Of a DNA stretch of 64,000 nt, positions 18,735 through 60,240 are shown piece after piece. Each line of letters starts with the position of its first letter. Within the stretch, counting starts at the first letter, position 1. This DNA comes from a virus. The notes beneath the pieces are model-generated. The model had not been told where the DNA came from. It made no database searches and saw nothing but the letters and a program-made list of their open reading frames with translations. Where the stretch lies: positions 1-64,000 of IMG/VR virus record IMGVR_UViG_3300042691_042551. One strand, written 5' to 3'. The position numbers and the translations under genes are program-made.

Positions 18735-19380
18735 GGCTATTTATTTAGCTTTTGATGAAATGAATGAGCAAAGGTTTATAACCTATTTGCGGTACGCTCA
18801 AAGAGCAATAGAAAACTTTGGTGTTTATCCAATACTTGTTACAAAAGAAGAGAAACACACAATTAAACAAGGTCGATTTACTCCAATACCGGATTATTTT
18901 TACATTCGATCTGTTTCTGTAAATGGAATAAAGGCCATTATCTCAAACGAGCAATCATCAATACAAGGTCTTGGCTATCCATCATCACAGAGAGAGTATT
19001 TGTACACTGTAGAAGATGGAAACGTGCTTTTTGAAAAACAGGCAAGAGAGTTTTTAGAAAACCAGCAAGCCGATGTTGATTACCGTGTATTTGATAGAAA
19101 TAGCGAAGGAGACATATTGGTACCTATCCAAATGCAAGAATGCATTATATGGTTTATTCGAAAAGAAGAAGCCTATAAACGGTACATGGCATCCAATGGC
19201 CGAGAAGGAAGAGGTTTGTACAACGATAGCAACAGCCAATGGTTAATATCACGTACTGAAGCGCTAAATGATATAGAAACGCCATCAGAGGATGAAATTG
19301 CTTTGATATCAATGATTTGGAAAACAAAAAGTCCATTAAACTATGGACGAGGCTATCGAGATTTTAATAAGATTCACTAA
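18703..19380 (+). CDS. Neck/adaptor-type structural protein (225 aa)
   Basis: Begins with the helical phrase typical of small head-completion or adaptor proteins (ISLPEAIYLAFDEMNEQRFITYLRYAQRAIENFGVYP), then beta-rich, then helices containing 'ECIIWFIRKEEAYKRYMASNGREG'. It ends at the base where the tail hub gene begins. It should bridge portal and hub. Assigned by pattern and position only. Confidence 0.6.
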   Translation: MELTQKISLPEAIYLAFDEMNEQRFITYLRYAQRAIENFGVYPILVTKEEKHTIKQGRFTPIPDYFYIRSVSVNGIKAIISNEQSSIQGLGYPSSQREYLYTVEDGNVLFEKQAREFLENQQADVDYRVFDRNSEGDILVPIQMQECIIWFIRKEEAYKRYMASNGREGRGLYNDSNSQWLISRTEALNDIETPSEDEIALISMIWKTKSPLNYGRGYRDFNKIH

Positions 19381-24417: not shown

Positions 24418-24882
24418 ATGGATTACAGAGGTCAATTTATGTCTGGGGCCGGTGGCCAAAAAATACAAGGTATTCAGCAATATGTTGGCGAATTTCAAAA
24501 GGCTAATGAAACAGATAGTTACGGCTTTGGAGAAGGAGCAATAGATGTATTAACTTCTACTGGATCTTGGGCCGGAACTGGCGCATCAATAGGAACTGCA
24601 ATAGGTGGTCCTGTGGGTACAGCAGTAGGAGCCGTTGGTGGTGCTGTTGTAGGACTTGGAATTGGTTTATACAATGCTTTTAAATCCGATGCAGAATCAG
24701 AAAAGCAACAAGCCGCGGCAAAAGAATATAACGCCAAAATGGAAGCTGAACGACTTCAAAAAAACGCATTGATAAAAACTCAAAATGAAATGCTTATAGA
24801 CCAGTTTGAGTCAAAAACGCAACAAGAAAATTTAGCTGCTTATAAAATGGCAGCATCTACTCCAAACTATCAATTTGTATAA
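24418..24882 (+). CDS. Cargo/ejection protein with glycine-zipper segment (154 aa)
   Basis: Residues 53-83 form a glycine-zipper membrane segment (GASIGTAIGGPVGTAVGAVGGAVVG...), as in ejected phage proteins that form a channel in the host envelope. The rest is helical and polar. It starts 1 nt after the hub stop and is followed by two further small cargo-type proteins and the giant polymerase protein, the order seen in crAss-like genomes. Confidence 0.65.
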   Translation: MDYRGQFMSGAGGQKIQGIQQYVGEFQKANETDSYGFGEGAIDVLTSTGSWAGTGASIGTAIGGPVGTAVGAVGGAVVGLGIGLYNAFKSDAESEKQQAAAKEYNAKMEAERLQKNALIKTQNEMLIDQFESKTQQENLAAYKMAASTPNYQFV

Positions 24883-24884
24883 AA

Positions 24885-25760
24885 ATGACTAATAAGAAGA
24901 AAAAAGATGAACCGATAGAAACTATTTTAGAATCTCAGGATCAATCAATAACGTCTTTATTTGATAACCTTAATAAAGACATGGGAAAAAGATCAACTTC
25001 TGCTATAATTGGTGGAACAAAGGGTTTATTGGATTTTGGTTTGGGTTTGTATGGTTTATTCAAAGATGATAACATTGGCGCTCCAGCGTATGAATCTACT
25101 TATCAAACAAGCAATGTGTTGCCAGCATTACGTGATAGGGCAATGATGGAAGCTTTTTCCGGTAAAGATGATTATGCTGCTCGCATACGCGCGAGAAATC
25201 AAAGAGATATGGCTGTTCAGTCAGCAATTAACCGTTCCGGTGGTAGCCGTGCATTTGTTCAATCTAATGTGGCTGCAGCCGATGATGTATTTAATCTTGG
25301 AAATCTTAGCATTGATAAAGAAATGGAAGCAGCAAGAATTAATGCATTAAATACTGCAGGAAACCTTGAAAATCTTGTTATTCAAGACAAGCTGAATAAA
25401 ATGAAAGATATGCAGTATTCAAATGAGGACAAATACAGAAAGCTTATGGCTGAAATTACGCTTGATAGAGAAAATCGTCAAGGTGCCATGGGCATGATGT
25501 CTTCCGGTTTAAATGATGTTGCTCAAGCAGCTTCAATGGAAGATATGTGGGGTAAAAATGGAACGATGAAGCAAATTCAGCTTGCAAATTTGATGTTATC
25601 TGCTAAAAAAGCAGGCGTAGACTTATTTGGAGGAGAAAAACAATCGACTTTTGTGTTGGGTCCGGTTGATACTGGTATGAATCACACTCCTATGGAAAAT
25701 CCAGCTAATGTGTTTCTTTTTGGCCGTAATGGAGAGTGGGTTTCAACAAAAAAAAATTAA
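24885..25760 (+). CDS. Cargo-type virion protein (291 aa)
   Basis: Basic, low-complexity N-terminus (MTNKKKKDEPIETILESQDQ), then a short hydrophobic Gly-rich stretch (IIGGTKGLLDFGLGLYGLF, about residues 41-60), then long helices (SAINRSGGSRAFVQSNVAAADDVFNLG...). The layout resembles an internal virion protein carried in the capsid or tail and ejected with DNA. No enzymatic motif is seen. Confidence 0.6.
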   Translation: MTNKKKKDEPIETILESQDQSITSLFDNLNKDMGKRSTSAIIGGTKGLLDFGLGLYGLFKDDNIGAPAYESTYQTSNVLPALRDRAMMEAFSGKDDYAARIRARNQRDMAVQSAINRSGGSRAFVQSNVAAADDVFNLGNLSIDKEMEAARINALNTAGNLENLVIQDKLNKMKDMQYSNEDKYRKLMAEITLDRENRQGAMGMMSSGLNDVAQAASMEDMWGKNGTMKQIQLANLMLSAKKAGVDLFGGEKQSTFVLGPVDTGMNHTPMENPANVFLFGRNGEWVSTKKN

Positions 25761-25772
25761 AAAACAATAACT

Positions 25773-27170
25773 ATGGTTGATTTTGGAAATTTATACGCTG
25801 GAAACCTTAACAAAGGTTCACAAGAGCAAAAATTTAATTGGGAAGCACTTCAGAAAAACAAATTATTAGAGCTCGAAGCATTTAATCAACAGCTTGCAAG
25901 AGAAAACGCCTTTCAAGATCAGGAAAGAGCCGTAATGCAAGATATATGGAAAAACCTTGCTGAAACACTAAAAGAAAGTAACGGTTTTCTTGCCGGCAAT
26001 GCAAAGGAATTTAAAAACGTTTACGAACAAAAAAAACAAGAGTTATTTAAACATATGTCTAATTATACGTCTGTACAAGCTTTTATGGCTTCTGATGGCG
26101 TATCTCATTTGACAAAGTTTACTGAAGATGTATTAACTGACCAGTCTTTTAAAAACGGGATTCAAACAGCAAAAAGCTACGAAGCCTATCAAAAATCGAT
26201 TTTAGAAGGAAAAACAGCACATAAATTAGTAATGACAAGTGACGGAGATCCTTTGGGAGCTGATAATGCATTTAGAGATGTTATATCTGGAGAATCATCA
26301 AAAGGTATTCAATACAGAGGTTCACTTAGCAATAATGTTGATGTACCACCACCAATTGCCGGTGAAAAAGATGAATACTATACATTTGAAGAAATTAGTC
26401 AAATTGCAACTGTACAAAATCCTCAATTTTTTGATCAGGAATTTAAAGACGAAATGAATAAAGTAATTCAGTCTGGAAAAGGAAAATCAAACAGTCCATT
26501 TCTCAAACGATTTAAAGATCCAAACTATGACATTAGAAGACGTGAAAGTGATGCTGATGCTGAATTAAAAAGAGCACAAGCAAATTATTACAATGCTCGT
26601 CCGTCAGCAGGTGGCGGTGGTGGTGGAAATCCATTAACTACTCAAAAAATTCCAGGCATAACAACTACAAAAGTATCAAGCGAAAAAAATGAAAATGGTG
26701 TAGAAGTAAAAGCAGAAAGAACCGTAAATAGTGTTACTCAAGTTTCTGGATTTATTACTTTAAACGAAAATGGATCCGTAAATAGCATTTTAAATACTAT
26801 AGATCTTGCAAATACAGGAAATTCACTGCTTCCATCTTATACTAGATTGGTTGATGAAGCTATTAGATTTTCTTCTTTTACAACAGAAGAATATTCAGTT
26901 GGTGAAATTGGTGGCAAAAAGGTTAGTTATTTAAAAAATGTAAACTTGGATGAATTTAAAAGAAAACTTTTTAAAGGAATTACCGATAAAAGAGAATCCT
27001 TGTATTTAACTCCTGACGAATCAGCTGCTATGAAAGTTGGTGTTGAAGAATATATTGCCCATTTACAACGTGAAAGAGCTGCGGGAAGAAACACTGGTAT
27101 ATTACTTGGAGTTTGGGACCCTCAATCTAATCGAGTAGAAGGATTTGCTAACGAAAGAAGAATTGAATAA
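25773..27170 (+). CDS. Cargo-type virion protein (465 aa)
   Basis: Predominantly helical and polar; residues 10-90 look like a coiled coil (KGSQEQKFNWEALQKNKLLELEAFNQQLARENAFQDQERAV), followed by mixed sequence, a Gly/Ser-rich linker (SAGGGGGGN, about residues 276-284) and a beta-rich C-terminal part. The linker separates two domains. It ends 2 nt before the giant gene and probably travels with it into the host. Confidence 0.6.
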   Translation: MVDFGNLYAGNLNKGSQEQKFNWEALQKNKLLELEAFNQQLARENAFQDQERAVMQDIWKNLAETLKESNGFLAGNAKEFKNVYEQKKQELFKHMSNYTSVQAFMASDGVSHLTKFTEDVLTDQSFKNGIQTAKSYEAYQKSILEGKTAHKLVMTSDGDPLGADNAFRDVISGESSKGIQYRGSLSNNVDVPPPIAGEKDEYYTFEEISQIATVQNPQFFDQEFKDEMNKVIQSGKGKSNSPFLKRFKDPNYDIRRRESDADAELKRAQANYYNARPSAGGGGGGNPLTTQKIPGITTTKVSSEKNENGVEVKAERTVNSVTQVSGFITLNENGSVNSILNTIDLANTGNSLLPSYTRLVDEAIRFSSFTTEEYSVGEIGGKKVSYLKNVNLDEFKRKLFKGITDKRESLYLTPDESAAMKVGVEEYIAHLQRERAAGRNTGILLGVWDPQSNRVEGFANERRIE

Positions 27171-27172: not shown

Positions 27173-30100
27173 ATGGAAACTGGAGACCCTAAAAAACAAA
27201 AAGCTCAACAGGTAAAACAAGAAGTTATTGAAAACTCACCTGAATTGCAAGATGCATTGCATGGACTTAATACAGCTCAAAAAAGAAAAGATGATGTATT
27301 AGCCAATAAAATTGATCAGGTGTGGAAACCTATTGAGCGTTCCGATAAAGAAATAGCTGAAGCTTATAAACGTGCACCGGAACCAATAAGTCCTGATGAA
27401 CAAGAAGTTGAACTAAGAAATAAAGAAAGTATAGCTTTTTTGTTAAAGGCTAAATACGGCTATAAAAATGATGCTGTAATATTAAGTCTTGCTGAAAAAG
27501 CTATGCGTTATCCGGAATTTAAAAACAAGATAATTTCTCATAAAAGCTTAGTCCAATTACAGGCAGAAGAAGATGCTGCTAAATACGAGCTTAATGAAAG
27601 CATGAAAAAAGCACAATCTGGGTTTAATGCATCATTAGCCGCAAGCGGTGAAACTACTGAAGACTTTAGATTGCAAGACGAACAAATAGTAACAGCTAGA
27701 CAAAAATACGATAAAGCAAAATCTATAAAATCTGCTTATGAAGATGCTATAAGAAGAGATCCGGCATTTGTTGAAAAGCAAAAGTTTGATTTAATGCGTT
27801 CTTTGATAGATGTGGATATGAAATATAGACAATCTATTGCAAACAATGCTATTCGCAAAATAGGTGGACCAGATAAAGCAATAGAAGTTACTGAGGCCAA
27901 TTCTCAATACAATTACTTGCTTCAAGAACAACAAAAAGCTGAATCGCTACTTCAAGATCCAAATTATCCAGCCGAGAAAAAACCTAAGCTAGAAAAATAT
28001 TTAAACGAGCAACTACCAATACTTATTAAGCAAAAAGAAGATCAGTTACGAAAATTTGGTAACGTATCGGAAGAGGTAAAAAAACTGGAAGATGCAAGTA
28101 AAACTGCTATTGAATCTTATCAAACCATAAAAGAGGTGTTAAATGAAAGTCCCGAAACCTTAAAAAGCAATAAGGAAATTGCACTTAGGTTAATGGATAG
28201 AGCTAAAACAATAGTAACTACAGGTGGTGTACAAGAATTAGTTATACCAGATTTAGGCAAAAGTTTTGGTTTGTCGTTTGCCGGAACCATAGTTGACATG
28301 GGTGAGTTTTTTACAGGAAAAACATCTGTAGGGGATTTTATAAAAAGAGAAATTGGCATAAATGAACAAATCACCGAAAAAGAATGGGGTGGAGGCAAAT
28401 GGATGGTTAATATTGCTTCCGCAGCAGGTGCGACTGCTCCATATTTAATATTAGGAGGTATTGGTGGTGGGGCAAGAGCTGCAACAGCAAAAATGCTAAC
28501 TGCTAGGTTTGCAACCAATATTGGAGGAAAAATAGCAAAAGCCGGTGTTAACTATTTAACAAACACGCTATTATCGCCAGCAACTTATGGATCCCTTGCC
28601 GGTGTGTATACAAATTCATTTGATCAAGAGTTTTCCAATTTAATCTTAGCCGGTAAATCACCTGAAGAATCATATAACATTGCAAGCAAAAAAGCTACTG
28701 CTGATGCGGTAGTTAACGTAATTTCTGAAGGTATATTTGACGAGGCCAGTGTAATTTTTAAAGGTAGTGGAGTAAACCAATGGATTGCAAAAACTGGTTT
28801 TGGTCAATTTTTGCAAGAGTCAAATGTATTGGATGCTATGTCAAAAGGAAAATACGGTATGGCTCAAGAACTTGGCAAACGTGTATTTAACTCATGGGCC
28901 AGCGAAACTTTAGAAGAAGTTGTTGCTATGGGTGGCGAATCATACAACAAACACATGGTTAATATTCTTGCTCAGCAAGAAATTTACAAGGATATATTAC
29001 CTACAATGCATGAAGTAGGTGTAATGTTAGGTTCTGTATTGCTTACTACCGGAGCTATGACTATGGCTAATCGTGGAAAGTCCATAGATATAGAACTTGC
29101 TGAAATGTCAAAATCTGGTTATGATAAGGCTGTAAGAGGGTTTAAAACCTTAGTTGATACGGGTGTATATAGCGAAGAAGAAGTTAAACCGTATATGGAT
29201 AAACTACAGCGCTATTCAAATTTATCTATGGCTATGGCTAGAAACGCTTTGCCGGAAGATATTGTAAAATACGATAACCTATTAAATCAGCAAGAAGAGC
29301 TCAAAAAAAACATGAGCAATCCATCTATATCACTTGGAGAGAAAAATCGCTTACAGTTTGAGATAAATAGCATTGAGGCGCAAAAAAATGAGCTTTTTCA
29401 ACAAGCCGTTGTCAACAGTGTTGAAAAAGAGATAAGTGACAAAATAGAAGCTAAAAACAAAAGTTTTATTGAAAACAATAAAAAACAAGTTGAAAAAATA
29501 AAAGCCGAAAGTAACCAAAAGGGTGCAACAAAAGAAGAGCAAGCAGCTTTAAACTATCTTGAATCAACCACCAATAACGTATCTGAGGAAGCAAAAAAAA
29601 ACGGACTTCTTTCATCTTCTATTACTAATGTAAATAGTTCTATCGCTCAAACCGAAGAACAGTTACAAAAAGAAGAAAACTTACTGAAACAGTTAAAGCA
29701 GGAAAAAAATGAACGTGGCGTAGCCGCGCAAGAAGAAAAGGTTGCTGAAGTAAAGAATCAACTTGATAACTTAAATCAGGTAGCCGTTGGTTTAAAAAGC
29801 TTGCAATCTGCACAAGAAGCAAAAGTGGGTGATGGTTTAGCCGCTAGGGGTAAATCTACTACTACTGGAACAGTAAAACCTTCATCTGAGGTTGAAAAAA
29901 CTATTCAAGAAAAAAACCAAGCCAAACCAATAACAAAAGCTGAAGAAGCTACAAAAATGCCTGAATTTCAGGAACTATTAGCATCTTACAAAACCGAAGG
30001 ATTAACCAAAGAACAGGTAAGGCAAAGGCTAATTGACCAATTTGGCGATAACATGTCGGGTAAAGAATTTTCAAAACTTGAACAGAGTTTGAATAATTAT

Positions 30101-33100
30101 GATGTGGCCCCTGCTCAAACTGCTAAAGAAAATGCTCCTCAGCAGCCTCAAGGAAAACAATTTGCCGCCAGTCCTGCAGCAACTAAAACATCAAACTTTT
30201 ATAGCAAAACAAACGGAAATACTATAAAGGTTGAAACTCAGGAAGATGGAACAAAACAAGTTGTTGAAATAGACCAAAAAACTAAAAAAGAAGTTAAACG
30301 TACTTCTGTACCTGAAGCGCAATCAAAAAAATCTGATTTTGAAATAGCTTCAGAAATTACTGGTCAAAAGCTAGACAAGCAATTTACCGGTAAAACCAAA
30401 AAAACAGCTAAAAAAAGCGATAGTGAATATGTTGCTGAAGCCAAAAAAACTTTAGGTGAAAATGTGCAAGAAAGCGATATAGCCGAATATGTAAGAAAAA
30501 AAATTGCTTCTGGCGAGTTGGATATGAAAACAGCAAAACGAGTAAGCACGGCTTTAAAAAATGCCTTTCTAGATAAAAAGGGAAAAGCTAGACAAGCTCG
30601 CGGAAGAAAAAACCAAGAAGAGGAAGCAAAAGCCGAAGAACAACGCAAAAAAGAAGTAAATGACCTTATTGAGCAAGCTGAAAGCGCAAGAGAAACCATA
30701 AGACAAGCTAATCAGTTGCAAGAAGTGTTTCAAGAAGCAACACAAGAAAGTGTAGTACAGTCTGACACTCATGAAGCTGCAGTCGAAGCTGAAACTGCCA
30801 AAACCAAGGCTAATGGTATAGGAAGCCTGAGCAAAAAAGAAATAATGCTCATGAACATCAAAAACATAACAGGAAAGGTGTTTAGTGGCGTTATGGGTTT
30901 TCACAAACAAGCAATGGTTGATGGCAAATTTGTTGAAGAATCATACAAACGGGTTCAAGAGATGATTTATGAACAGTTTAAATCATTAATGATGAACAAG
31001 TTTGATCTGGACTTGACCACATACGAAAGAAATGAAGAAGGATATCTACTGTTTGACGAAAACGATGAAAACGTAGAAGCATTAACTGAAATGAATCGAG
31101 TATTGAGTGTGTTTGATCCCAACGTGGCAGAAATACTACTTGAATCGATTGACGATACCGCCAAAGTGTTTGGCGAAAAAGGGGCTAATTTTCACGCCCT
31201 TATAAAACACGCTATTTCTGAATTGGGTAAAAGTTATGGCTTTCCTAATTATGCAGCAATAGAAGAATCGGTAGAAGATGCAGAGGTTCTCGAGCATACC
31301 GCAGAAATACTAGAGTCAGGAGAAAGCATTTTGCAGGAAGTTATTGACAAGGAAATGAACAGTAAAGCTGTCAAGTCCGCAGAAGCTATTGCAAAACTTG
31401 CTCATGCTGTTTTTCTTCAAAAAGCCAAGAACGCTAATGTAAACGTAAGCATTAACCCGGACTATTCGTTATCGTTTTTGATGCCATTGTTTAAGGGAGT
31501 CAACGGACAATCGAGAACGATAACGGACGTGTTGAATTATATTCAAGCAAGATTAGCTAGCGAAAACCATCCTATAAATGATACTCAGGGAAGATTGCTT
31601 ATGGAGTCTATCGGCCAGGTTTTGTACGATTTGCAAAACAAAATGTATGAACAAACCGATGGTATCAATGAGTTGAAACAAAATCCAATGACTATGACCT
31701 TTATAGAGCGTTCATTGTCAAGTATTTTTAATTCTCAGATAAGTGATGTTTATGCCACTTATTTGTCTGCAAAAGGCAAGGTATCTGTATATGTTGCCAA
31801 CCGAGACAAAATTAAAAAAGACGTAATTTCTCAAATACGATCTGAAGTACGGAATTTTGTTCAGTCTATATATGCCGTTTCTGATTTAGAAGGTGGCCAA
31901 AGACGTTCTCGCTTTATACAAGCTATTGCAAAAGTAAGAATGAATATAGACAATCCCGAATCTGTATTATTTGCTGGTGACGAAGTTTTATTGGCAATGG
32001 GTAACGAGTATCCATACATTAAAGATATTTTAACAAGGAAACTTGATGCCATAAGAAACACAACAGTAAAATCTCCAACACAAGTAGAAGAGGTTGGAAG
32101 ATACATTTTAATGCTCAGTTCACCACAAGCTGCAAATCTGGAAAGTAATCCAATGATTGAGCAAATGGCTTTTGAGCAAATAGCTAACTCTGAAAAAATA
32201 TTTGGCAAAATATCTCAAAGCCAGTATTGGTCAAATCGGTTAAGCCAAAATCAAAGCGCTGTAAAAAGGCCCAATAGAATGTCAAGTTCTATTTCTGAAG
32301 CAAAAGCAGAGGCACTAAACAACAAGAAAAAACCTACTGAAGATGCTCAGAAAAACGATATGGACGATTCTGTAAATGTCGTAACCAATTCAAAAAACAG
32401 AAATTTTGGTTCCGAAGGTTCAGATCGAAAGGCTCGACTAAGCAAAAACCCGCTTGTAGCAATTAAGTCAATAGCCAAAAACTTATCTGTAACCATGTTA
32501 GGCGAGTTTTCTATTGAAAAGGGAAAAACTATTGCTTTAAAAGCTGAAAAAATGTCAAGGGAAATGGTACATTTAGCTAAGATTGCTATGTTTTACCAAA
32601 CCAAAAACTTTGGCAAGTACGGGTATGGTGTAATTGATCAAGTAAGTGATTCTCCAAGAATACACATGATTAATGGTGCACGTATACAGTTAAATGGTGA
32701 AAACAAGTTTGTATTTGCCGGTGATGTAAAATATCCAGGAAGTTTGATTGAAGATGGCTCTTTGCTTCTTGATGCCGTTCAAACTGCGGTTATGAAAGCA
32801 AAAGAAATGTTTCCGGGAATTACCATTAAACAAATGGAACAGCATATACCGTCATTCTACAAGATTGATGGTACCGGAAAAGTAACATATAATCCAACAG
32901 CACTTGAAAATGAAGCTTTTAAGTCATTTAACGACTACATTAAGGCTAAAAGTAAAATGTACTATGATCCTAAAGCCGGAGATTCAATAGCCAAAACAGA
33001 AAGGGCTTATAAAGCAATACTTGAAGCAACAAAAGAACTTTACTATGCTAATGACTACAAGACAGGTAAAGAAAACTTTGAGAAGAAGATTGCCTTTATT

Positions 33101-36100
33101 AAAAACAACCGAGATATGGAGGTTACTAAAGGAATGTCCGATTTCGCGAAGAATTTAATTGACAATGATCAAATTGTCGAATGGTCTAAGAAAAAGAAAG
33201 GAAACTTTAAAAACTTCTTCAAAGAATTTGTTGCAAACGAAGAGTTTAATCGATTTTATGCAAATCAGTATGTCCGCGGTGATTTAGAAAGCTACATGAA
33301 CCTTGACCCGGATAATGTTTTTGTTCGTTCAAAAATGATAACAGCTCCAGGTATAGGTGTAAACGTAGATTTACCAATGCGATACATGATTTTGGATAAA
33401 AATCTGTACAATGGAAGCGACAAAATAATGCTTGATGTAAACGGAAATCAGGTGCCTTGGGTACCAAATGATGGTGTTATGTTTTTGTCTGAAGGTGCTG
33501 GAAACGTAATTACTGCAGGTGTTGGTCCGCATCATGGATACAGAGGAACATTTAAGTATGCTATGCACTCGGTAAATGACCAAAACGTAGCTACTTCTCA
33601 TAAAGGTATGCAGATAGTATTGACAAAGAAGCTGGCAGAATCAAATCCGGCTTTAATGTCAATATATAACATGATGAAGGAAAACAACTTGGATGCGGTA
33701 CTTGACCATTCAGCAGAAAAAATAGGTGCTGAAAAAAGAACCAAAGCCGGATGGAACGAAAGCGGTGTAACTCTTGAAGAAGCCCCTATTGTGCATACAG
33801 CCAATTTTGGGGATATTTATGTTCAACTTTCGGTTTCTGAAAACCAAAAAGGAATGTGGTCGAAGGATTCTGACCAAAAAAACAGACAAACGCCATTGTA
33901 TGCCGGTAGCAGCGAACAGGGTATTGAGTACGTAAACAAGATTCAAAACTTTATAGCGAACAGAATAAAAAGTGGAGTATTTAACTCTGCGCAACGAAGC
34001 GCAAGGTTTAACAAGTTAATGAATAATTACAGGTTCAGTACTGAAGAAAACAAACAAGAAGCCAAAGATGAACTTATTAGCTACTTAAAAAGAAAATCTA
34101 AAAGAGAACCACTATCTGTAAGGGAAAAATACAACCAAATTATCAGCAGGATAGAAACAGGTTATGTATTTGAGTACGATGATGGATTATTGTATCAAGT
34201 TCACGCATCAACTTTTAGGGAAGGTATGTCAAATAGAATGGAATCGTTTTATATGGCATTGACCTCACCATTGCTTGGCAAAGAACAACCAAAGTACAGA
34301 TTAGAAGATCGCCCAGGTTTTTCAGAAGTTGTATTGCCGGCAAAAATGAAAGAATTGCTTAGCGATTATGCAGATAATGATGGTAACTATTGGGTAACTG
34401 GTGTGAAAATACCATATAACAACTCCGCTACTCAGCTACGAGCAAAAGTAATTTTTGACGAAAGTTTGGATGATAACGGTTCCAATGTTATTCCACCGGC
34501 AGAATTTTACGCCTTGTCCAACTCAGATAATGACGGAGATAGACTATTTATCTTTCCAATGCATCCAAATCCGGAAAATATAGTTTCGCCTTTAAAAGAG
34601 TTTGGAATTAACATAGATGAAAACACAACATTTGACTCATTATTAAGCGAATACACTACAAAATCTCAAGAAGATGATTGGAATGGTCCTTCGTTTGACT
34701 ACGTATCTATGTTGTATGAAGATTACCTTGCTGCTAAAGAACTGGAATACAACGGAAAGTTGTTTAACGATGTAGCTTTTGCTCAGCAAATGGCTGTTCA
34801 GTCAAATGACGTTAATGTGTTTCTGTCAGTTGTGGAATCTGAAGGTTATAAAACTAAAACCAAAAACACGTCTTCAAATGAGGGCCAATTACAACGCGTT
34901 ACAGAAAAGAATTTTTCTGCTGGTGGTATTGGCACTGCAGCATCATATATCCGTTCTATATCTCAATTTATTCAGCTTGGAATGGATTACGGATTGCGTG
35001 TAGCAATGAGATCTTCACGATCAAAGCCGTATTTGTTTAATTTCAACAATGAGGTATTTGATCCGGCTGTTATGGAAACTGTTCCTACGTTAAATCAAAA
35101 ACCGATTAATATAAGGGATATTGAAAGTCAAGCAGTTCAAAAAGCTATTGCCAACAATCCAGATTATGCAAATCTCACCCCTGATTTACAAGAAAATCTT
35201 GTAAGTAATGAAAGAAATAAGCTATTGCAAGAACTTGAATCATTGGTTGAGGAAGAATCAATGCTTAATACGCAAAACGCGACTTCTCAAATACTGCAGG
35301 TTTATGTGGATGCTGTTAAAAAAGGTTATTTGAATAAGGTTGGACTAAATAATCAGAATATGCAGGTGTTTATACACCTTGCAACAAGATTAGGGCTCAA
35401 CGAGAAAGTTCCGGGCCAAGGCATAAGAATGGCTTTAAGACTTGTTAATCAGCCTATTGTTAAAAAGTATTTTGAACTGACTGAGTACAATCCAATGATT
35501 CAGGATCAATACTCCCAGAGAGATTACGAGTTAATTGATAAACTAAAGAAAAATCTGGCCGAACTGGTACCTAACGATATGCAAAACAACATCAATACCC
35601 TTGATGTGAACCTAAACGCATTAAAAAATGAGTACAATGGAAAGCATATACAAGATACTGAATACAATACTGAAAATCAACTTATAGGTGACTATGCGTT
35701 GGCGCAAATTGAAGCCATAAAAGCACTGGAATCTTTACTTGATATACAAGCTGCGGTAAGTCCGTACAGTTTAAATTCTAAGAAGTTTTCAGAAGTTCCT
35801 ACGACAATAGAAGAAGCAAGGACATTTATCCATGAAATGGAAAAATATCAGGCATTAGCTACCGATGAAGAGGTTAAGGCGACATTGAAAAAAATAGAAA
35901 ATGCTCAAAGGACTGGTAAAAATGCAAACCTTGTAATTTCGGAAATGCTGCAAAACAATGGCCGGTATTCAAGTCCAATGGTATTTAATGTTCGAAATGA
36001 TGCAGACAATTACCAAAGGCTTGTAAATTCATACGAATTTTTAAAGCAACTGAACGACAAATCAGGTCCATTATACGAAAAAGAAAAAGGCAAATATATT

Positions 36101-39100
36101 GAAGCTGGCTTTAGCGAAAGCGCTATTAGTGATATGCTCAATAATCTAGCTAAGATACATACTAACATGTTGCTAACCGGTAACATGCACGTTTTTGAAA
36201 ACCAGGAAATGTTTGCTAAAGCTGAAGGTTATTTTATGATGATGGCTTCAATAGCAGATTCAAATACTGCTTACGATTCCAAAAACAACAAAATGGTTTT
36301 TGATTTTATGTCAAGGTTGTTTCCAAGAGCCGGCAAAATGTTTCACAAGTTAGTTGGTAAGTTTCAAGAAGGATACAACAGACAAATATTACAAGAGGTA
36401 TTAAGCCAAAAAGTAATGCTTTCTGAAAATCAGAAAAAAGACTTCAGCTATGCAATGTCTAAAATACTGAAGGTTTTGTTTGAAAATAAACAATACTTTT
36501 CCGGTAACTTATTTTTGAATAACCTTGAAATTCAAACATTTGAGGACAAAAACATACTACCAATACGAGTAGAATCAGACGGTTCTGCAGTATACATTGA
36601 CAAACATTATGTCCTTGAAGATGGAATATTTAAGCAGGCTAATCTTGTTCCAATAAACAAGTTGACAGATGCTATCATTTTTAATGATGTGCTTAAAACA
36701 GATCCACTAAGAGCGTTTTTAGACGTTATACTTGGCAATCAGATATTGTCCGAAAACATAATGTTTGATGAAACAAGAAAGCGTTTTGTCAATAAAAAAA
36801 CAGGGTATATTTACGGAAGTGAGAAAAACACACAAGCATCTGATGTAAAAGATTCTGAACGCATATTTACTGCTGGTACCACATCTGTACCCGAATACAG
36901 AGAGGCTTTAATATCGTTGGCCAGTGATATTTTTGGAACCATCAGGCAATCTAGCTTAGAAGGTATTGAGAACGAAAGCACAGAAACCATGTGGAATTGG
37001 GCAGCAATGATGTATTTTGACAAAAACGAAAACCAAAGGTTATCTCCAAGATACAATACGCCTCAAAACGAAGAAATAACTTTAAGCCAAAATGGACGTG
37101 TGACTTTTAGCCAAGAGCAATTAAAGGATATAGCCAATGGAATATCTACTTTGTTTGATGGATTGAATAACATACGGTACAATGCAAATGGTGAAGCAAT
37201 TGGAACTATTGCAGATGCTATACGGTATGAATTGGAATCAAATCAAATCGATGAAGGGTTTCTTTCGGAAGATATTATATCCAATCCGAACGCCTGGTTA
37301 CTTTATTTTTCAAATAACAATACATACCCTCAGGTAGAAAAATTACTAGGTATTCTCAAAGCTGATAATGAAGAAAATCATGCTAATATTAGGAGTTTGA
37401 TTAACGAAAACTTTCTGGGCTATGACATGATAAGCTTTGCCAAAAACTCAATAAAAACAATACTTAATAATCCTACACTTACTCAATTTTATGATCAAGC
37501 TATGATTTCTCAAATGAAAAGCGATGATCCTAAAGCACAAAGTATTGCCAAAAGACACGAGTTTTTCCATACTAAGTTAGATAACGGACAAATAGTGCTT
37601 TATAAACGAGTTCAAGCCGGGTATACAGAAACAAAGAATTTCTTTGGTCGTTTTCAAAAAGTACCAAACTACAAATACATTGCCATTGGTAGATACAGTT
37701 CTAATGGTGAAGTAGAACGGTCAATGTTTACCAATGGTCGCCTTGAAAGCAGTGTTGATGGCGTATTGCAATTACTAACCCAAGAAGGTGTTCATAATTT
37801 AGATTACGATAGCGCGATTAAGAAAATAAGCGAGATAATATACGGTTCATCTTCTGGAAGTATTGATACTGTTGGTTTTCTAGCTGATATTCAGAAAAAG
37901 TTTGAAACTCTCAAATCGGAAAAATTCAAGAAAATACGCGGTTATAACCACCCCGAGTTTTTTGATATGATGATTTCAGAGTTTGAGCAAGCCGTTGTAA
38001 AAGGAATATACGATAACAAAGGCGATGTGTTTAAAGATACTAAGGCTCAGCTATTGCTTCAAACAATCAGAGCAATAAGAAGTGTAAAACAGGCAAATGA
38101 TAAACTGTTTGTAAACAACAACTTTGTTATTGACAATGCTGAATTTACCGAAATAACCAATGCTCCTATTGACTCTCAAAACACAAGAGAAAAGGCAAGA
38201 CGTGCAACTAATCGAGTATGGCAACGTAATGCCGAATCTCAAACATTATCTGCATTTGACATAGCCAGAAACATTGTAGAAACATTAAAAGGAAACGTTT
38301 CTACCACTAGAAGCAAATCATTGTTTGAGTATTTGGAGGTGAAAAGCAAAGGAAACAAAGGAAGAAGAATTGCACAAAGCACTTCAGCCGGTTCCGGACC
38401 TAAAATGTTTTCTAACGTCAACGATATGATTGACTTGTTTCAGGCTCAGCTTAATGGAAATCCATTATTAGGTAGCGTAGCTAAGTTTTTAAAAGAACAA
38501 GTGGGTGGAATACCGGTATCTGTTGTTGACAATCAAGAATTTGAAGCATTGGAACAAAGCATATTTGGAACAACCGGTACCGCAAGAGCCATTTACATAC
38601 CAAGCCAAAGACAGATTGTATTCAATGGAGATAGAAGTTCATTAGACGCTCCTGAGCTTATTATTCACGAAGCGTTTCACGCATTTACTAATGCAGCTAT
38701 TAATGACCCTAACAATGTTGATTTAAGAAACGACATGGTAGAGTTAAGAAACGTAGTGTTTAACTCAAATTACCGATTAAACACTACTAACCCAATGGCC
38801 GTGCAAACCCTTAATGACATATTTGCCGATCCAAACCTTGATGAATTTGGTCAAATGGAAGAAATTATATCAGAAATGTTTTCTGATAAAACTGGCCAGA
38901 TGCAAGCTTTATTGAACAACATTAGGGTTGGTCAGGGTACTCTTGAACAATATAAAGGTGAAAACAAAACTTTATTTGGTAAAATACTCGATACGATATC
39001 AAAATATCTTGCAAAAATGGGAATTGGTAAAAACACCGATTCAGTACGTCAAGTCCTTGAAAACATATTGACAACGTACGAAGATATAATGACATATGAA

Positions 39101-42100
39101 AAAGCAATGCCTCAGCATGTTACATCAAATATATACGAGTACAACGGGAGGACATTTGTAAATAGCAATCAACTTGTTAACGATAACTACGGTGTTAACC
39201 AAAACACAATGGAAACCATTGCTAACGATATGGGTATTAGCATAGGCAGAATCATCAAAATGGCTGAAGATTTAGATACTGCATCCGATTTTTTGCATCA
39301 GTTTGTAATGGATAATGTTCTTGGAAGAAACTCAAACCACAATAGAACTGAAGCAAAAAGAATGATGGCCGGCTTTAATTCAAATGTTGTAAACAACATA
39401 CCAGATGATATTATGCGTCTGTTTGATTCAAAAATGAACGGTTGGACTATTGATGAAGATTTATCTCAAGGATCTTACTTCTCAACCGGCATGATGGTTT
39501 CTGGAAACAACAACATTGTTTCTTTCAATAATCAAGGGGATGTAAAAGTAACCAGTATTGGGGCTTCATTTAAAGAAAGCGATTATTCAGTTTATGATAC
39601 TCAAAGTCCTATTTTAAACGCAAAAGCTGCTCATAAACAAAAACTTATGATGAAGGCTGCAATACAAGGTGTGTTTTTAGAAGGTCAGGGCTATCCGGTA
39701 AAAAAACTTGAAATTATTGTTGCTGAAGCCAATGGTGTAGTTGGTGGGGCCGAAGCTATTGAAATGACAATGGATGAAGCAAGAAGTATTGTAAGAGCTT
39801 ATGTTATTGACAAGGTTGCAGATCGCATGGGCGCTTTTGAAGCAATGCCAATAAGTAATGAGGACTTTATGAAAAATCCTCAGAACATATATGGCAATTA
39901 TTACATTGATAAAGCCTTATCTGCATTACGCGATATTACCGATGAAGATAGAGAAGCACTTCGCCAGGGTTTTAAAAAGAATACAATGGTTAGTCTTGGC
40001 AATGTGGACCTAGAAGCTCAGGTATCGCTTTATGAGCAATCGTATAATAACGTAAAAGCATTGCTAAAAAGCGGAAGTATTGAAAACATGACTGAAAAGG
40101 ACATGATTGAATTGCTGGGTGACATTAAGCATTTAGAAAGAATGAGTGATGATGCTGATGTTTCCGGGATAAAATCAATCTTAAATGGCATTACCGATGT
40201 AATACTGATGCAGCGAGAGGGAAATACCTTAAAAGAGTCAATAGCTATATCAAAAGCATCTAATGTTACAGACATCGCTCAGTGGATTCCTTCCATTACC
40301 AATTCACTTCAAACCTTAAACCTTGGAGTTAACACGTCCGAAATAACAGATACCATTGCTCACTCAATCGAAGAAAATCAGAATGAAGCACAAGATTTTC
40401 AAACCAAATTGAGAAAAGCAGCCATAGAAGCTGTTAAGTCAAGAAATGTTCGTTTTGCTAAAGCAAGAGCGACCTTGAACAAATACTATTTGAGCGATAA
40501 TCCATTAGAGAAAGCTTTTCAAAGATTAACGGTGCCTTATTATGGTTCGGTTCAAACTACACGGCTTAAATCTCTTAGCGAAGCTTCAGTTGACTTAGCA
40601 AATGGAAACATTACTCAGGCAGAATATGAGTTATTGCAGTTAGTAAATGGTTTTTATCAAAAAAACGCAAGATACATATACAATAACAAGGGTGTCAACC
40701 ATGGTGGTTTATCATCTGAAGGTGCAGCTATATTTGAAACTCCGGCAAACGATAGACAATTCTTCTTACCATACTACCCAAGCAAAGTATTTGAACGGTA
40801 TAAAAACAAACCAAAAGCATTTGCTGCATTGGCTTCTTACTGGCATAATTTCAGAAATAACAGTTCTGAATTACAGAATGTTAAGTTAGATTCATACGAG
40901 TTTCGGGATGCAAACGGTTCTTTAGTTCGCGTATTTAAAAACAGTACAGTACGTGAGATAATGAAAGAAATGGAGGATTTGGAAAGAAAAGAAGGTGAAT
41001 TAAGAAGGATTGCTTTCCAACGAAACCCAAATGCAGTATTGCCACAGGCCAAGTATTCAACAGAAAAAGCAATTAAAAACCTATACGATGCTGCTATTAA
41101 AGCGGATAAAGGTAAAAATGCACAAAACCAAAGCAAACAGCAACAACACACAATGACGTTGCCGGGCATGGTTCGAACTAAAGAAAACGTAGCTAATGGA
41201 AACATGTTTTCAAATCTGATGAATTATTCCGGTGAGGTTTATAAAGCAAAAGCACTAGTTGAATCAAGGGGTGCGTATTCAATATTGGACATACTTGCAG
41301 CAAACTTAAACCTGAATGAAATCCGAAACTATATTGATTGGGATGAACGCGTTAGATTGCTAAAACAGAAATACAAAGAAGATAAACACGAGTTTATACA
41401 TCAAGTAGCTCGTTTTGCTTCTTCAATGGCCAGATATGCACAACTTGCATTTAAGATACCAAATGCTATGTTTGACTTTGCAGCAACATCATTAAGTGCT
41501 GCTACGGCAATGGACGGCATTACAAAAGAAGATAAACTTGCTTGGGCCAAATACATTGGGAACGCATCATTTGTAAATTATCCATTCGCTGTAATGAAGC
41601 TTGTCTATAATTTTCATGAAATACGCGATATAGCATTGGCTTTTGGGTTGTTTAATCATAGAGATTACTCTACAAGAAAAAAATCACCATTAGGGCTTGT
41701 AAAAGGGGCTATGTTATTAAACTACTGGCTATCTGGCAATATACCCAGGTTGGTATTTTTGGCCGATCAATTAACACTAAAAGATCTCAAGAACATACAA
41801 AATATCACTCAAACCAATAAAACTGGCGAATGGCTAAGTTTTCTTACCGGGCAACGTGAAAAACGCGATATACTGAAAGGTTTAGATAAACAAACCCTTA
41901 CAAATGTAAGGCGTGCATTAGATCGGACTGAAAATGAATTAGGTAAATTTAGAAATTCAACGGAACGTATTTATTTGTCAAATGGCACTATTTCAGCATT
42001 TATGCAGTACAAGTCGTGGGCACCAGATTTAATATGGGCGCGTTTTGGTGGAGAGTATAAAACAAACGGTGTAACTTACATGGGTAGATACAGAGCTTTG

Positions 42101-42631
42101 GCCAAAATGATAAATGGTACTATGCCTGATAATATGTCACAACAAGAGAAGAACAAATACATAATACAGGCTACAAATGGTATTGCCATGACCTCATTGA
42201 TGGTTTACATACTTGCACAACCGGTAGATTCTGGGGATGATGATGAAGAAAAATACAGGAATTTATTTGAGAAAATTATGGTTCAGTATCTATTTTTAAG
42301 CCCAAAGAGTATTATACAAGCAGCTTCCCGTTCATTGCCGGCAATCGGTTGGATGGCCGATGTTTATTACAATGGATGGAAAATACTCTCACAAAAAGAA
42401 GAATTATACCAAAAAAACTCAGGTAGAAACTCCAAAACCCAATATAAGAAAGGAGATAGCAAAAACGTAAGAGCTTTTGTCAAAACATTACCAGGAAACG
42501 CGTTGTATGTAGATAAACTAAGTAATGAAATAAACGCTATGAGGAGACAATCAAGTAGCGGATCTGGCTTTGGTGATTTTGGAGGCGACTTCGGTGGAGA
42601 TTTTGGAGGCGATTTTGGAGGTGGATTTTAA
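27173..42631 (+). CDS. Giant virion protein with RNA-polymerase and metallopeptidase motifs (5152 aa)
   Basis: One uninterrupted frame, about a quarter of the window. Residues 2452-2456 are DNDGD inside 'YALSNSDNDGDRLFIFP', matching the Mg-binding DxDGD loop of two-barrel RNA polymerases; about 350 residues earlier, 'NDGVMFLSEGAG' (2099) and 'SHKGMQIVLTKK' (2142-2153) look like the lysine-bearing partner barrel, and 'GGIGTAAS' (2583) follows, as in crAss-like virion polymerases. Residues 3832-3836 are HEAFH, a zincin metallopeptidase motif, with 'EEIISEM' downstream as possible third ligand. Hydrophobic stretches lie near residues 420-490 and in the last 700 residues; the C-terminus is a repeated GDFG tail. 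Expected role: carried in the particle, ejected, and used to transcribe early genes. Domain edges are inferred. Confidence 0.8.
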   Translation: METGDPKKQKAQQVKQEVIENSPELQDALHGLNTAQKRKDDVLANKIDQVWKPIERSDKEIAEAYKRAPEPISPDEQEVELRNKESIAFLLKAKYGYKNDAVILSLAEKAMRYPEFKNKIISHKSLVQLQAEEDAAKYELNESMKKAQSGFNASLAASGETTEDFRLQDEQIVTARQKYDKAKSIKSAYEDAIRRDPAFVEKQKFDLMRSLIDVDMKYRQSIANNAIRKIGGPDKAIEVTEANSQYNYLLQEQQKAESLLQDPNYPAEKKPKLEKYLNEQLPILIKQKEDQLRKFGNVSEEVKKLEDASKTAIESYQTIKEVLNESPETLKSNKEIALRLMDRAKTIVTTGGVQELVIPDLGKSFGLSFAGTIVDMGEFFTGKTSVGDFIKREIGINEQITEKEWGGGKWMVNIASAAGATAPYLILGGIGGGARAATAKMLTARFATNIGGKIAKAGVNYLTNTLLSPATYGSLAGVYTNSFDQEFSNLILAGKSPEESYNIASKKATADAVVNVISEGIFDEASVIFKGSGVNQWIAKTGFGQFLQESNVLDAMSKGKYGMAQELGKRVFNSWASETLEEVVAMGGESYNKHMVNILAQQEIYKDILPTMHEVGVMLGSVLLTTGAMTMANRGKSIDIELAEMSKSGYDKAVRGFKTLVDTGVYSEEEVKPYMDKLQRYSNLSMAMARNALPEDIVKYDNLLNQQEELKKNMSNPSISLGEKNRLQFEINSIEAQKNELFQQAVVNSVEKEISDKIEAKNKSFIENNKKQVEKIKAESNQKGATKEEQAALNYLESTTNNVSEEAKKNGLLSSSITNVNSSIAQTEEQLQKEENLLKQLKQEKNERGVAAQEEKVAEVKNQLDNLNQVAVGLKSLQSAQEAKVGDGLAARGKSTTTGTVKPSSEVEKTIQEKNQAKPITKAEEATKMPEFQELLASYKTEGLTKEQVRQRLIDQFGDNMSGKEFSKLEQSLNNYDVAPAQTAKENAPQQPQGKQFAASPAATKTSNFYSKTNGNTIKVETQEDGTKQVVEIDQKTKKEVKRTSVPEAQSKKSDFEIASEITGQKLDKQFTGKTKKTAKKSDSEYVAEAKKTLGENVQESDIAEYVRKKIASGELDMKTAKRVSTALKNAFLDKKGKARQARGRKNQEEEAKAEEQRKKEVNDLIEQAESARETIRQANQLQEVFQEATQESVVQSDTHEAAVEAETAKTKANGIGSLSKKEIMLMNIKNITGKVFSGVMGFHKQAMVDGKFVEESYKRVQEMIYEQFKSLMMNKFDLDLTTYERNEEGYLLFDENDENVEALTEMNRVLSVFDPNVAEILLESIDDTAKVFGEKGANFHALIKHAISELGKSYGFPNYAAIEESVEDAEVLEHTAEILESGESILQEVIDKEMNSKAVKSAEAIAKLAHAVFLQKAKNANVNVSINPDYSLSFLMPLFKGVNGQSRTITDVLNYIQARLASENHPINDTQGRLLMESIGQVLYDLQNKMYEQTDGINELKQNPMTMTFIERSLSSIFNSQISDVYATYLSAKGKVSVYVANRDKIKKDVISQIRSEVRNFVQSIYAVSDLEGGQRRSRFIQAIAKVRMNIDNPESVLFAGDEVLLAMGNEYPYIKDILTRKLDAIRNTTVKSPTQVEEVGRYILMLSSPQAANLESNPMIEQMAFEQIANSEKIFGKISQSQYWSNRLSQNQSAVKRPNRMSSSISEAKAEALNNKKKPTEDAQKNDMDDSVNVVTNSKNRNFGSEGSDRKARLSKNPLVAIKSIAKNLSVTMLGEFSIEKGKTIALKAEKMSREMVHLAKIAMFYQTKNFGKYGYGVIDQVSDSPRIHMINGARIQLNGENKFVFAGDVKYPGSLIEDGSLLLDAVQTAVMKAKEMFPGITIKQMEQHIPSFYKIDGTGKVTYNPTALENEAFKSFNDYIKAKSKMYYDPKAGDSIAKTERAYKAILEATKELYYANDYKTGKENFEKKIAFIKNNRDMEVTKGMSDFAKNLIDNDQIVEWSKKKKGNFKNFFKEFVANEEFNRFYANQYVRGDLESYMNLDPDNVFVRSKMITAPGIGVNVDLPMRYMILDKNLYNGSDKIMLDVNGNQVPWVPNDGVMFLSEGAGNVITAGVGPHHGYRGTFKYAMHSVNDQNVATSHKGMQIVLTKKLAESNPALMSIYNMMKENNLDAVLDHSAEKIGAEKRTKAGWNESGVTLEEAPIVHTANFGDIYVQLSVSENQKGMWSKDSDQKNRQTPLYAGSSEQGIEYVNKIQNFIANRIKSGVFNSAQRSARFNKLMNNYRFSTEENKQEAKDELISYLKRKSKREPLSVREKYNQIISRIETGYVFEYDDGLLYQVHASTFREGMSNRMESFYMALTSPLLGKEQPKYRLEDRPGFSEVVLPAKMKELLSDYADNDGNYWVTGVKIPYNNSATQLRAKVIFDESLDDNGSNVIPPAEFYALSNSDNDGDRLFIFPMHPNPENIVSPLKEFGINIDENTTFDSLLSEYTTKSQEDDWNGPSFDYVSMLYEDYLAAKELEYNGKLFNDVAFAQQMAVQSNDVNVFLSVVESEGYKTKTKNTSSNEGQLQRVTEKNFSAGGIGTAASYIRSISQFIQLGMDYGLRVAMRSSRSKPYLFNFNNEVFDPAVMETVPTLNQKPINIRDIESQAVQKAIANNPDYANLTPDLQENLVSNERNKLLQELESLVEEESMLNTQNATSQILQVYVDAVKKGYLNKVGLNNQNMQVFIHLATRLGLNEKVPGQGIRMALRLVNQPIVKKYFELTEYNPMIQDQYSQRDYELIDKLKKNLAELVPNDMQNNINTLDVNLNALKNEYNGKHIQDTEYNTENQLIGDYALAQIEAIKALESLLDIQAAVSPYSLNSKKFSEVPTTIEEARTFIHEMEKYQALATDEEVKATLKKIENAQRTGKNANLVISEMLQNNGRYSSPMVFNVRNDADNYQRLVNSYEFLKQLNDKSGPLYEKEKGKYIEAGFSESAISDMLNNLAKIHTNMLLTGNMHVFENQEMFAKAEGYFMMMASIADSNTAYDSKNNKMVFDFMSRLFPRAGKMFHKLVGKFQEGYNRQILQEVLSQKVMLSENQKKDFSYAMSKILKVLFENKQYFSGNLFLNNLEIQTFEDKNILPIRVESDGSAVYIDKHYVLEDGIFKQANLVPINKLTDAIIFNDVLKTDPLRAFLDVILGNQILSENIMFDETRKRFVNKKTGYIYGSEKNTQASDVKDSERIFTAGTTSVPEYREALISLASDIFGTIRQSSLEGIENESTETMWNWAAMMYFDKNENQRLSPRYNTPQNEEITLSQNGRVTFSQEQLKDIANGISTLFDGLNNIRYNANGEAIGTIADAIRYELESNQIDEGFLSEDIISNPNAWLLYFSNNNTYPQVEKLLGILKADNEENHANIRSLINENFLGYDMISFAKNSIKTILNNPTLTQFYDQAMISQMKSDDPKAQSIAKRHEFFHTKLDNGQIVLYKRVQAGYTETKNFFGRFQKVPNYKYIAIGRYSSNGEVERSMFTNGRLESSVDGVLQLLTQEGVHNLDYDSAIKKISEIIYGSSSGSIDTVGFLADIQKKFETLKSEKFKKIRGYNHPEFFDMMISEFEQAVVKGIYDNKGDVFKDTKAQLLLQTIRAIRSVKQANDKLFVNNNFVIDNAEFTEITNAPIDSQNTREKARRATNRVWQRNAESQTLSAFDIARNIVETLKGNVSTTRSKSLFEYLEVKSKGNKGRRIAQSTSAGSGPKMFSNVNDMIDLFQAQLNGNPLLGSVAKFLKEQVGGIPVSVVDNQEFEALEQSIFGTTGTARAIYIPSQRQIVFNGDRSSLDAPELIIHEAFHAFTNAAINDPNNVDLRNDMVELRNVVFNSNYRLNTTNPMAVQTLNDIFADPNLDEFGQMEEIISEMFSDKTGQMQALLNNIRVGQGTLEQYKGENKTLFGKILDTISKYLAKMGIGKNTDSVRQVLENILTTYEDIMTYEKAMPQHVTSNIYEYNGRTFVNSNQLVNDNYGVNQNTMETIANDMGISIGRIIKMAEDLDTASDFLHQFVMDNVLGRNSNHNRTEAKRMMAGFNSNVVNNIPDDIMRLFDSKMNGWTIDEDLSQGSYFSTGMMVSGNNNIVSFNNQGDVKVTSIGASFKESDYSVYDTQSPILNAKAAHKQKLMMKAAIQGVFLEGQGYPVKKLEIIVAEANGVVGGAEAIEMTMDEARSIVRAYVIDKVADRMGAFEAMPISNEDFMKNPQNIYGNYYIDKALSALRDITDEDREALRQGFKKNTMVSLGNVDLEAQVSLYEQSYNNVKALLKSGSIENMTEKDMIELLGDIKHLERMSDDADVSGIKSILNGITDVILMQREGNTLKESIAISKASNVTDIAQWIPSITNSLQTLNLGVNTSEITDTIAHSIEENQNEAQDFQTKLRKAAIEAVKSRNVRFAKARATLNKYYLSDNPLEKAFQRLTVPYYGSVQTTRLKSLSEASVDLANGNITQAEYELLQLVNGFYQKNARYIYNNKGVNHGGLSSEGAAIFETPANDRQFFLPYYPSKVFERYKNKPKAFAALASYWHNFRNNSSELQNVKLDSYEFRDANGSLVRVFKNSTVREIMKEMEDLERKEGELRRIAFQRNPNAVLPQAKYSTEKAIKNLYDAAIKADKGKNAQNQSKQQQHTMTLPGMVRTKENVANGNMFSNLMNYSGEVYKAKALVESRGAYSILDILAANLNLNEIRNYIDWDERVRLLKQKYKEDKHEFIHQVARFASSMARYAQLAFKIPNAMFDFAATSLSAATAMDGITKEDKLAWAKYIGNASFVNYPFAVMKLVYNFHEIRDIALAFGLFNHRDYSTRKKSPLGLVKGAMLLNYWLSGNIPRLVFLADQLTLKDLKNIQNITQTNKTGEWLSFLTGQREKRDILKGLDKQTLTNVRRALDRTENELGKFRNSTERIYLSNGTISAFMQYKSWAPDLIWARFGGEYKTNGVTYMGRYRALAKMINGTMPDNMSQQEKNKYIIQATNGIAMTSLMVYILAQPVDSGDDDEEKYRNLFEKIMVQYLFLSPKSIIQAASRSLPAIGWMADVYYNGWKILSQKEELYQKNSGRNSKTQYKKGDSKNVRAFVKTLPGNALYVDKLSNEINAMRRQSSSGSGFGDFGGDFGGDFGGDFGGGF

Positions 42632-60162: not shown

Positions 60163-60196
60163 TTTTTAAGCCGTTTTTTAACTTTAATTAAACTAA

Positions 60197-60224
60197 AAAA
60201 GCGAGGAGTTTCCCCCTCGCTTTT
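60197..60224 (-). terminator. Terminator splitting the PRTRC set
   Basis: A perfect 10-bp stem AAAAGCGAGG/CCTCGCTTTT (60197-60206 with 60215-60224) with an 8-nt loop; on the minus strand it is followed by T6. It lies 17 nt after the stop of the ubiquitin-like gene (protein C) and before protein F, so E-C mRNA can end here while F-B-ThiF-JAB expression is reduced or starts separately. Confidence 0.8.
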
Positions 60225-60240
60225 CTTTCTATTGTTACTT

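What the first reader, a model, noticed from the sequence alone, without database searches (positions are those of the whole stretch)
27173..42631. 5152-residue virion protein combining two-barrel RNA polymerase and zincin motifs
A single frame of 15.5 kb carries DNDGD (residues 2452-2456) with a lysine-bearing partner region about 350 residues earlier, as expected for a virion RNA polymerase of the crAss-like type, plus HEAFH (3832-3836), hydrophobic stretches and a repeated GDFG tail. crAss-like polymerases I know of are well below 3000 residues, so this looks like a fusion of polymerase with cargo and peptidase parts, possibly self-processed.
Basis: partly seen in the sequence, partly recalled or inferred. 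Interest (0 to 1): 0.84.

Follow-up and report, generated by a model that had tools for sequence, protein, structure and literature searches.

The report
Giant fused crAss-like phage RNA polymerase
This very large gene of an uncultured crAss-like bacterial virus encodes the virus's own RNA polymerase joined to a metalloprotease-like domain and a partner protein in one chain; giant polymerases of this kind are already known from crAss-like phages, so it is a divergent, fully fused member of a known family.

Summary
The 5152-aa frame, DNDGD (2452-2456), HEAFH (3832-3836) and the GDFG tail are exactly as described. The window is a crAss-like phage (capsid, tail rings and muzzle match Pfam crassvirus models). 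A second IMG/VR record encodes a colinear 5135-aa relative (34% identity) with both motifs.

The polymerase reading is right. Residues 1952-2852 match 78 crAss-like RNA polymerase cores by profile comparison (Prob 98.5, E 3.7e-15; reversed control 0.1). DNDGD falls on the catalytic DxDxD column, and K2144, K2183, D2713 and K2716 fall on near-invariant columns. An AlphaFold2 model places DNDGD in a double-psi barrel, and its best PDB match is 6VR4, the phi14:2 virion polymerase.

The surprise is not supported. The premise that these polymerases are well below 3000 residues is wrong: cr7_1 gp32 has 5443 aa, a review gives up to ~6000, and 4000-5300-aa frames were common among 50 records. The zincin matches the one in phi14:2 g065 and Fpv1 gp33. 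The C-terminus matches the gp49/g065 partner, so the gene fuses proteins separate in phi14:2. Two other IMG/VR records carry the same full fusion.

Virion location, activity and self-processing were not tested. The N-terminal ~1800 residues remain unexplained.

The parts
27173..42631 (+). 5152-aa giant protein: crAss-like virion-type RNA polymerase fused with a zincin-type domain and a gp49/g065-type partner
   Evidence: single ORF; colinear 5135-aa relative in L009 at 34% identity
33026..35728 (+). RNA polymerase core, residues 1952-2852
   Evidence: hhalign against 78 crAss-like RNAP cores: Prob 98.5, E 3.7e-15; reversed control Prob 0.1
33599..33736 (+). second-barrel (DPBB-B-like) lysine region HKGMQIVLTK ... 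SAEKIGAEK, with K2144 and K2183
   Evidence: aligned to lysines kept in 72 of 73 relatives each
34178..34567 (+). double-psi beta-barrel (DPBB-A) carrying the catalytic motif, residues about 2336-2465
   Evidence: VIA-align: model 315-444 to p97 N-domain double-psi barrels (Z about 9, rmsd about 2.2 over about 85 residues) and to cellular beta'/Rpb1 chains
34526..34540 (+). DNDGD, predicted Mg2+-binding DxDxD motif, residues 2452-2456
   Evidence: aligned to D/D/D invariant in 73 of 73 relatives; ProJPt-Bp1 gp17 has the same DNDGD
35276..35338 (+). conserved VDAVKKGYLN block with D2713 and K2716, equivalent of VDxAKDPYI in relatives (bridge-helix/trigger-loop side inferred)
   Evidence: D 72/73, K 65/73; hhalign
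38276..39178 (+). zincin-type metallopeptidase-like domain with HEAFH 3832-3836 and candidate third ligand in MEEIISEMFSD 3895-3905
   Evidence: hhalign against six downstream zincin domains: Prob 89, E 2.3e-6; reversed 0.2
41327..42508 (+). C-terminal gp49/g065-type RNAP-associated protein region, residues 4719-5112
   Evidence: hhalign Prob 92, E 6.5e-7; reversed and seven other pieces at most 1.0
27173..32572 (+). N-terminal about 1800 residues, no detectable relative apart from the sibling
   Evidence: no hits to N-terminal parts of other giants; no convincing Pfam or PHROGs match
19380..24416 (+). muzzle (tail tip) protein, synteny marker upstream
   Evidence: Pfam crAss_MUZ E 2.2e-32
24418..27170 (+). 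three ORFs (154 aa with Gly-zipper similarity, 291 aa, 465 aa) between muzzle and giant, in the place of cargo proteins; same layout as cr7_1 gp29-gp31
   Evidence: position only for the 291 and 465 aa ORFs

Best explanation
The ORF is the virion RNA polymerase of a divergent crAss-like phage, with the block that is split into g066 and g065 in phi14:2 fused into one chain. Most likely it is made late, packaged with the DNA near the portal, ejected in partly unfolded form through the muzzle-capped tail ahead of or with the DNA, and refolds to transcribe early genes. The active site is formed by the barrel with DNDGD (Mg2+) and the partner barrel with K2144/K2183. The C-terminal gp49/g065-type part travels with it as the associated subunit. 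The zincin domain lies near the junction that is a gene boundary in phi14:2 and cr7_1, so it may separate the polymerase from the partner or act on the host envelope. Shown here: homology of core, zincin and C-terminus, barrel fold and synteny. Inferred: packaging, ejection, early transcription, and any cleavage.
For: Profile match to crAss-like RNAP cores, E 6.8e-10 with 8 references and 3.7e-15 with 78 sequences, controls near zero. Of 27 residues invariant among 7 RNAPs, 18 are kept (chance about 2e-9 under a simple binomial). MAFFT places the three aspartates and two lysines in near-invariant columns. AlphaFold2 core model pLDDT 63.9; Foldseek top PDB hit 6VR4, E 3.5e-5, prob 1.00, the only one at E<=0.001; VIA Z 11.8 over 488 residues, QDE-1 next; the named BFVD hits at E<=0.001 are all but one from crAss-like phages and include phi14:2, cr50_1 and cr111_1 polymerase-type proteins. 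Zincin and C-terminus match the g065/gp49 gene product. Gene order muzzle, Gly-zipper ORF, two ORFs, giant equals cr7_1. Related proteins gp47, gp49 and gp50 are in phiCrAss001 virions by mass spectrometry (PMC10172136).
Against: No plain-sequence match to any annotated phage or PDB chain; homology rests on profiles and one moderate-confidence model whose alignment already contained crAss-like polymerases. The second motif position is DNDGD rather than DFDxD, and K after the motif is R. The N-terminal ~1800 residues match nothing outside the sibling. No virion or activity data exist for this phage.
Confidence: 0.9

Rival explanations
1. A polyvalent or tape-measure-like ejection protein whose DNDGD is a calcium-binding or chance motif, with no polymerase activity.
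For: D.DGD is expected 0.04 times per protein of this make-up, so not impossible by chance. Giant phage tape-measure proteins also carry metallopeptidase domains (PMC10770324). BLAST finds no polymerase.
Against: Colinear profile match over ~735 columns, 18 of 27 invariant polymerase residues kept, fold match to 6VR4 and QDE-1.
Confidence: 0.04
2. A self-processed polyprotein: the zincin cuts the chain into polymerase, partner and N-terminal cargo during head maturation.
For: The zincin lies close to where phi14:2 and cr7_1 have a gene boundary (HEIMH near residue 245-251 of the separate downstream protein), so a cut nearby would restore the split products.
Against: In P23-45 a 5002-aa polymerase fusion is present full size in virions (PMC10770324). 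Phages with separate genes keep the zincin although nothing needs separating. No cleavage site was testable.
Confidence: 0.3
3. The zincin acts on the host or envelope after ejection (for example on envelope proteins), not on the phage chain.
For: Metallopeptidase domains are described as characteristic of many tape-measure proteins (PMC10770324); the domain is retained in separate-gene phages.
Against: No substrate is known; the match is to a domain class without tested function.
Confidence: 0.4

Closest known systems
Cellulophaga phage phi14:2 g066 (virion RNAP, PDB 6VR4) with g065
   Same: Same polymerase core with invariant residues; top fold match; zincin at N-terminal side of g065 and gp49-type C-terminus in the same order
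   Different: Separate genes of 2180 and 1421 aa; DFDID instead of DNDGD; no BLAST-level similarity
Flavobacterium phage Fpv1 gp33 (4401 aa) and gp34 (1596 aa)
   Same: Polymerase motif followed by zincin (HEVIH 4179) in one giant protein
   Different: gp49-type partner (gp34) still a separate gene
CrAss-like phage cr7_1 gp32 (5443 aa) and gp33 (1945 aa)
   Same: Giant polymerase gene, larger than this one; same gene order after the muzzle; downstream zincin HEIMH
   Different: Has an extra upstream zincin (HEAWH 2426), uses TAG as a sense codon, partner is a separate gene
IMG/VR 3300018414_000007 (L108, 5006 aa) and 3300022894_000002 (L107, 5005 aa)
   Same: Polymerase, downstream zincin and gp49-type C-terminus in a single ORF
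   Different: Keep DFDVD/DYDID; L107 also has an upstream zincin; the window and its sibling sit on a long branch apart in the core tree
Azobacteroides phage ProJPt-Bp1 gp17 (3481 aa)
   Same: Identical DNDGD variant of the catalytic motif in a crAss-like polymerase
   Different: Shorter, other regions not fused
Thermus phage P23-45 gp96 (5002-aa tape measure-vRNAP)
   Same: Giant virion protein joining a two-barrel RNAP with a metallopeptidase domain (PMC10770324)
   Different: Tail tape measure of a long-tailed phage, polymerase at the N-terminus, another phage group

Membership tests
crAss-like virion RNA polymerase | Catalytic DxDxD motif in the family's sequence context | tested here: met
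   D2452, D2454, D2456 aligned to D in 73 of 73 relatives; flanks SNSDNDGDRLFI against GSDFDIDKLF
crAss-like virion RNA polymerase | Two double-psi barrels in one chain, second barrel with catalytic lysines | tested here: met
   First barrel: model 315-444 matches double-psi barrels. Second barrel: whole core matches 6VR4 932-1684, lysines K2144/K2183 conserved; second barrel rests on the same moderate-confidence model
crAss-like virion RNA polymerase | Profile similarity over the whole core | tested here: met
   Prob 98.5, E 3.7e-15, controls 0.1-6.3
crAss-like virion RNA polymerase | Genome context: crassvirus structural block with muzzle followed by cargo and polymerase genes | tested here: met
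crAss-like virion RNA polymerase | Present in the virion and transcribes early genes | not testable with these tools
   no isolate; shown for phi14:2 and by mass spectrometry for phiCrAss001
zincin metallopeptidase | HExxH plus third zinc ligand in a zincin fold | tested here: inconclusive
   HEAFH and downstream EEIISEM align to the phi14:2 g065-type domain (Prob 89, E 2.3e-6); no fold predicted, no Pfam hit
gp49/g065 RNAP-associated protein | C-terminal domain of the family | tested here: met
   Prob 92, E 6.5e-7, controls at most 1.0
order Crassvirales | Crassvirus capsid, ring and muzzle proteins | tested here: met
   Crass_capsid 1.2e-37, rings 1 and 3/4 above cut-off, ring 2 below cut-off, muzzle 2.2e-32

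The most novel reading that the evidence does not exclude
A single-chain, self-cleaving transcription block: the zincin, sitting near the ancestral g066/g065 boundary, releases the polymerase from its partner during maturation or after ejection, in a lineage that also carries the DNDGD form of the catalytic motif.
Probability: 0.15. Interest if true: 0.6.

Novelty: new member of a known kind. Interest (0 to 1): 0.3.

Why it matters
It extends crAss-like virion polymerases to a lineage that plain sequence search cannot link to any described phage, and it shows the polymerase, zincin and gp49-type partner in one reading frame, which fits the view that they act as one delivered unit. The placement of the zincin near a gene boundary gives a testable idea about its role, for which I found no published function in crAss-like phages. 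It is otherwise an expected protein for this phage group.

Tried and rejected
Direct searches (Pfam, PHROGs, tblastn in phages, PDB phmmer and two-row profile) found no relative of the polymerase core. Six viral scans with core, capsid, portal, motif-region and muzzle queries gave only one close relative, the sibling; the first found nothing and the portal scan added four distant hits at about 20% identity, not followed. A genome-contig scan found none. A first AlphaFold2 job with a two-row alignment was useless (pLDDT 37.8) and is not used. I first thought the zincin order was swapped relative to cr10_1; rejected, because crAss-like phages have two zincin positions and the window carries the downstream one. 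N-terminal homology to other giants was looked for and not found. Assembly chimera rejected by the colinear sibling. Stop-codon reassignment is not needed here, unlike cr6_1, cr7_1 and cr52_1.

Full report
What is there. The frame 27173-42631 (+) is a single 5152-aa ORF and all motif coordinates in the finding are exact. The window lies in a 72,690-base IMG/VR virus record. Its structural block is that of a crAss-like phage: terminase (PHROG 6681), P22-type portal, crassvirus capsid, ring proteins and muzzle. The giant follows the muzzle after three smaller ORFs.

An independent relative. Capsid search gave one close relative, IMGVR_UViG_3300034061_005646. Its record holds a 5135-aa frame colinear with the window's over its whole length at 34% identity, highest around the polymerase motifs. 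Close relatives otherwise seem rare: five other viral scans returned no other close one.

Polymerase test. BLAST, Pfam, PHROGs and PDB sequence searches saw nothing. The context of DNDGD (PPAEFYALSNSDNDGDRLFI) resembles that of known crAss-like polymerases (LPDEFTARTGSDFDIDKLFL in cr10_1, LPSEITTLSGSDFDVDKLYI in phiCrAss001 gp50), and ProJPt-Bp1 gp17 has DNDGD itself. Profile comparison of window plus sibling with eight reference cores gave Prob 96.6, E 6.8e-10; the reversed profile and three non-overlapping pieces gave at most 0.5, while a piece starting at 1001 that overlaps the core gave 81.8. With 78 sequences the core gave Prob 98.5, E 3.7e-15, reversed 0.1, other pieces 0.1-6.3. Of 27 residues invariant among seven polymerases, 18 are kept, against 15% identity overall. 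A separate MAFFT alignment of 75 rows puts D2452, D2454, D2456 on 73/73 D columns, K2144 and K2183 on 72/73 K, Q2218 on 70/73 Q and D2713 on 72/73 D.

Fold. AlphaFold2 on window residues 2022-2782 with those 75 rows gave pLDDT 63.9, pTM 0.60, about 70-95 near the motif. The rows include crAss-like polymerases, so this is not fully independent of the profile result. Foldseek's only PDB match at E<=0.001 is 6VR4, the phi14:2 virion RNAP (E 3.5e-5, prob 1.00, TM 0.31 on the query). VIA-align gives Z 11.8 over 488 residues to 6VR4, then QDE-1 and plant RDR2 at about 10. Model 315-444, which holds DNDGD at 431-435, matches double-psi barrels of p97 N-domains and cellular RNAP large subunits (that the p97 N-domain holds a double-psi barrel is my own knowledge).

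Zincin and C-terminus. The HEAFH region matches the zincin that sits in phi14:2 g065, Fpv1 gp33, cr7_1 gp33 and three metagenomic relatives (Prob 89, E 2.3e-6, reversed 0.2), including a candidate third ligand in EEIISEM. It matches the upstream gp47-type zincin poorly (Prob 5). Residues 4719-5112 match the C-terminus of the gp49/g065 family (Prob 92, E 6.5e-7; controls at most 1.0), almost to the end of both proteins. So the window gene joins what phi14:2 encodes as g066 and g065. Whether its N-terminus corresponds to g067 was not shown.

Is it unusual? No. cr10_1 gp32, cr50_1 gp59, Fpv1 gp33 and cr7_1 gp32 have 4460, 4774, 4401 and 5443 aa. A review gives up to about 6000 aa (PMC10136315). 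Among 50 IMG/VR records the polymerase frame was commonly 4000-5339 aa. Of eight longer ones read in full, two (L107, L108; 5005 and 5006 aa) also carry the downstream zincin and the gp49-type C-terminus in one frame. A fast tree puts window and sibling on a long branch of their own.

How it likely works. By relation to phi14:2 and phiCrAss001, whose homologs are virion proteins, the chain is most likely packaged, ejected partly unfolded and active on early genes. That is inference. The role of the zincin is open: self-cleavage near an ancestral gene boundary and action on the host are both compatible with what I saw.

Noticed in passing
window 57472-60899 (-): A PRTRC-type ubiquitin-like cassette in this phage: RadC/JAB, PRTRC ThiF/E1 (NCBIfam 1.2e-57), E2-like PRTRC_B (2.4e-9, below cut-off), PRTRC_C (3.1e-14) and PRTRC_E (8.4e-11). 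The ThiF has relatives in only 3 of 50,697 phage records and was not found in the sibling fragment.
   Followed up: partly
L107 (G016, 5005 aa), L108 (G042, 5006 aa): Other IMG/VR crAss-like records with polymerase, zincin and gp49-type partner in one frame; L107 has two zincin motifs, upstream and downstream of the polymerase.
   Followed up: partly
L024 (cr7_1 gp32 and gp33), L019 (cr6_1), L025 (cr52_1): The polymerase-block genes contain 26-148 in-frame stop codons that vanish when TAG is read as glutamine, whereas the window's giant needs no recoding.
   Followed up: partly
window 37556-37570 and 41387-41401 (residues 3462-3466 and 4739-4743 of the giant): Two further HExxH matches; the first is roughly matched in the sibling (HEYVH at 3467) but gave no zincin profile match, so it is probably not a protease site.
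   Followed up: partly
window 42510-42631 (residues about 5113-5152): The GDFG repeat tail lies beyond the conserved C-terminus and is not shared by the sibling, which ends in SSSGVYGGY; it looks like a lineage-specific extension.
   Followed up: no
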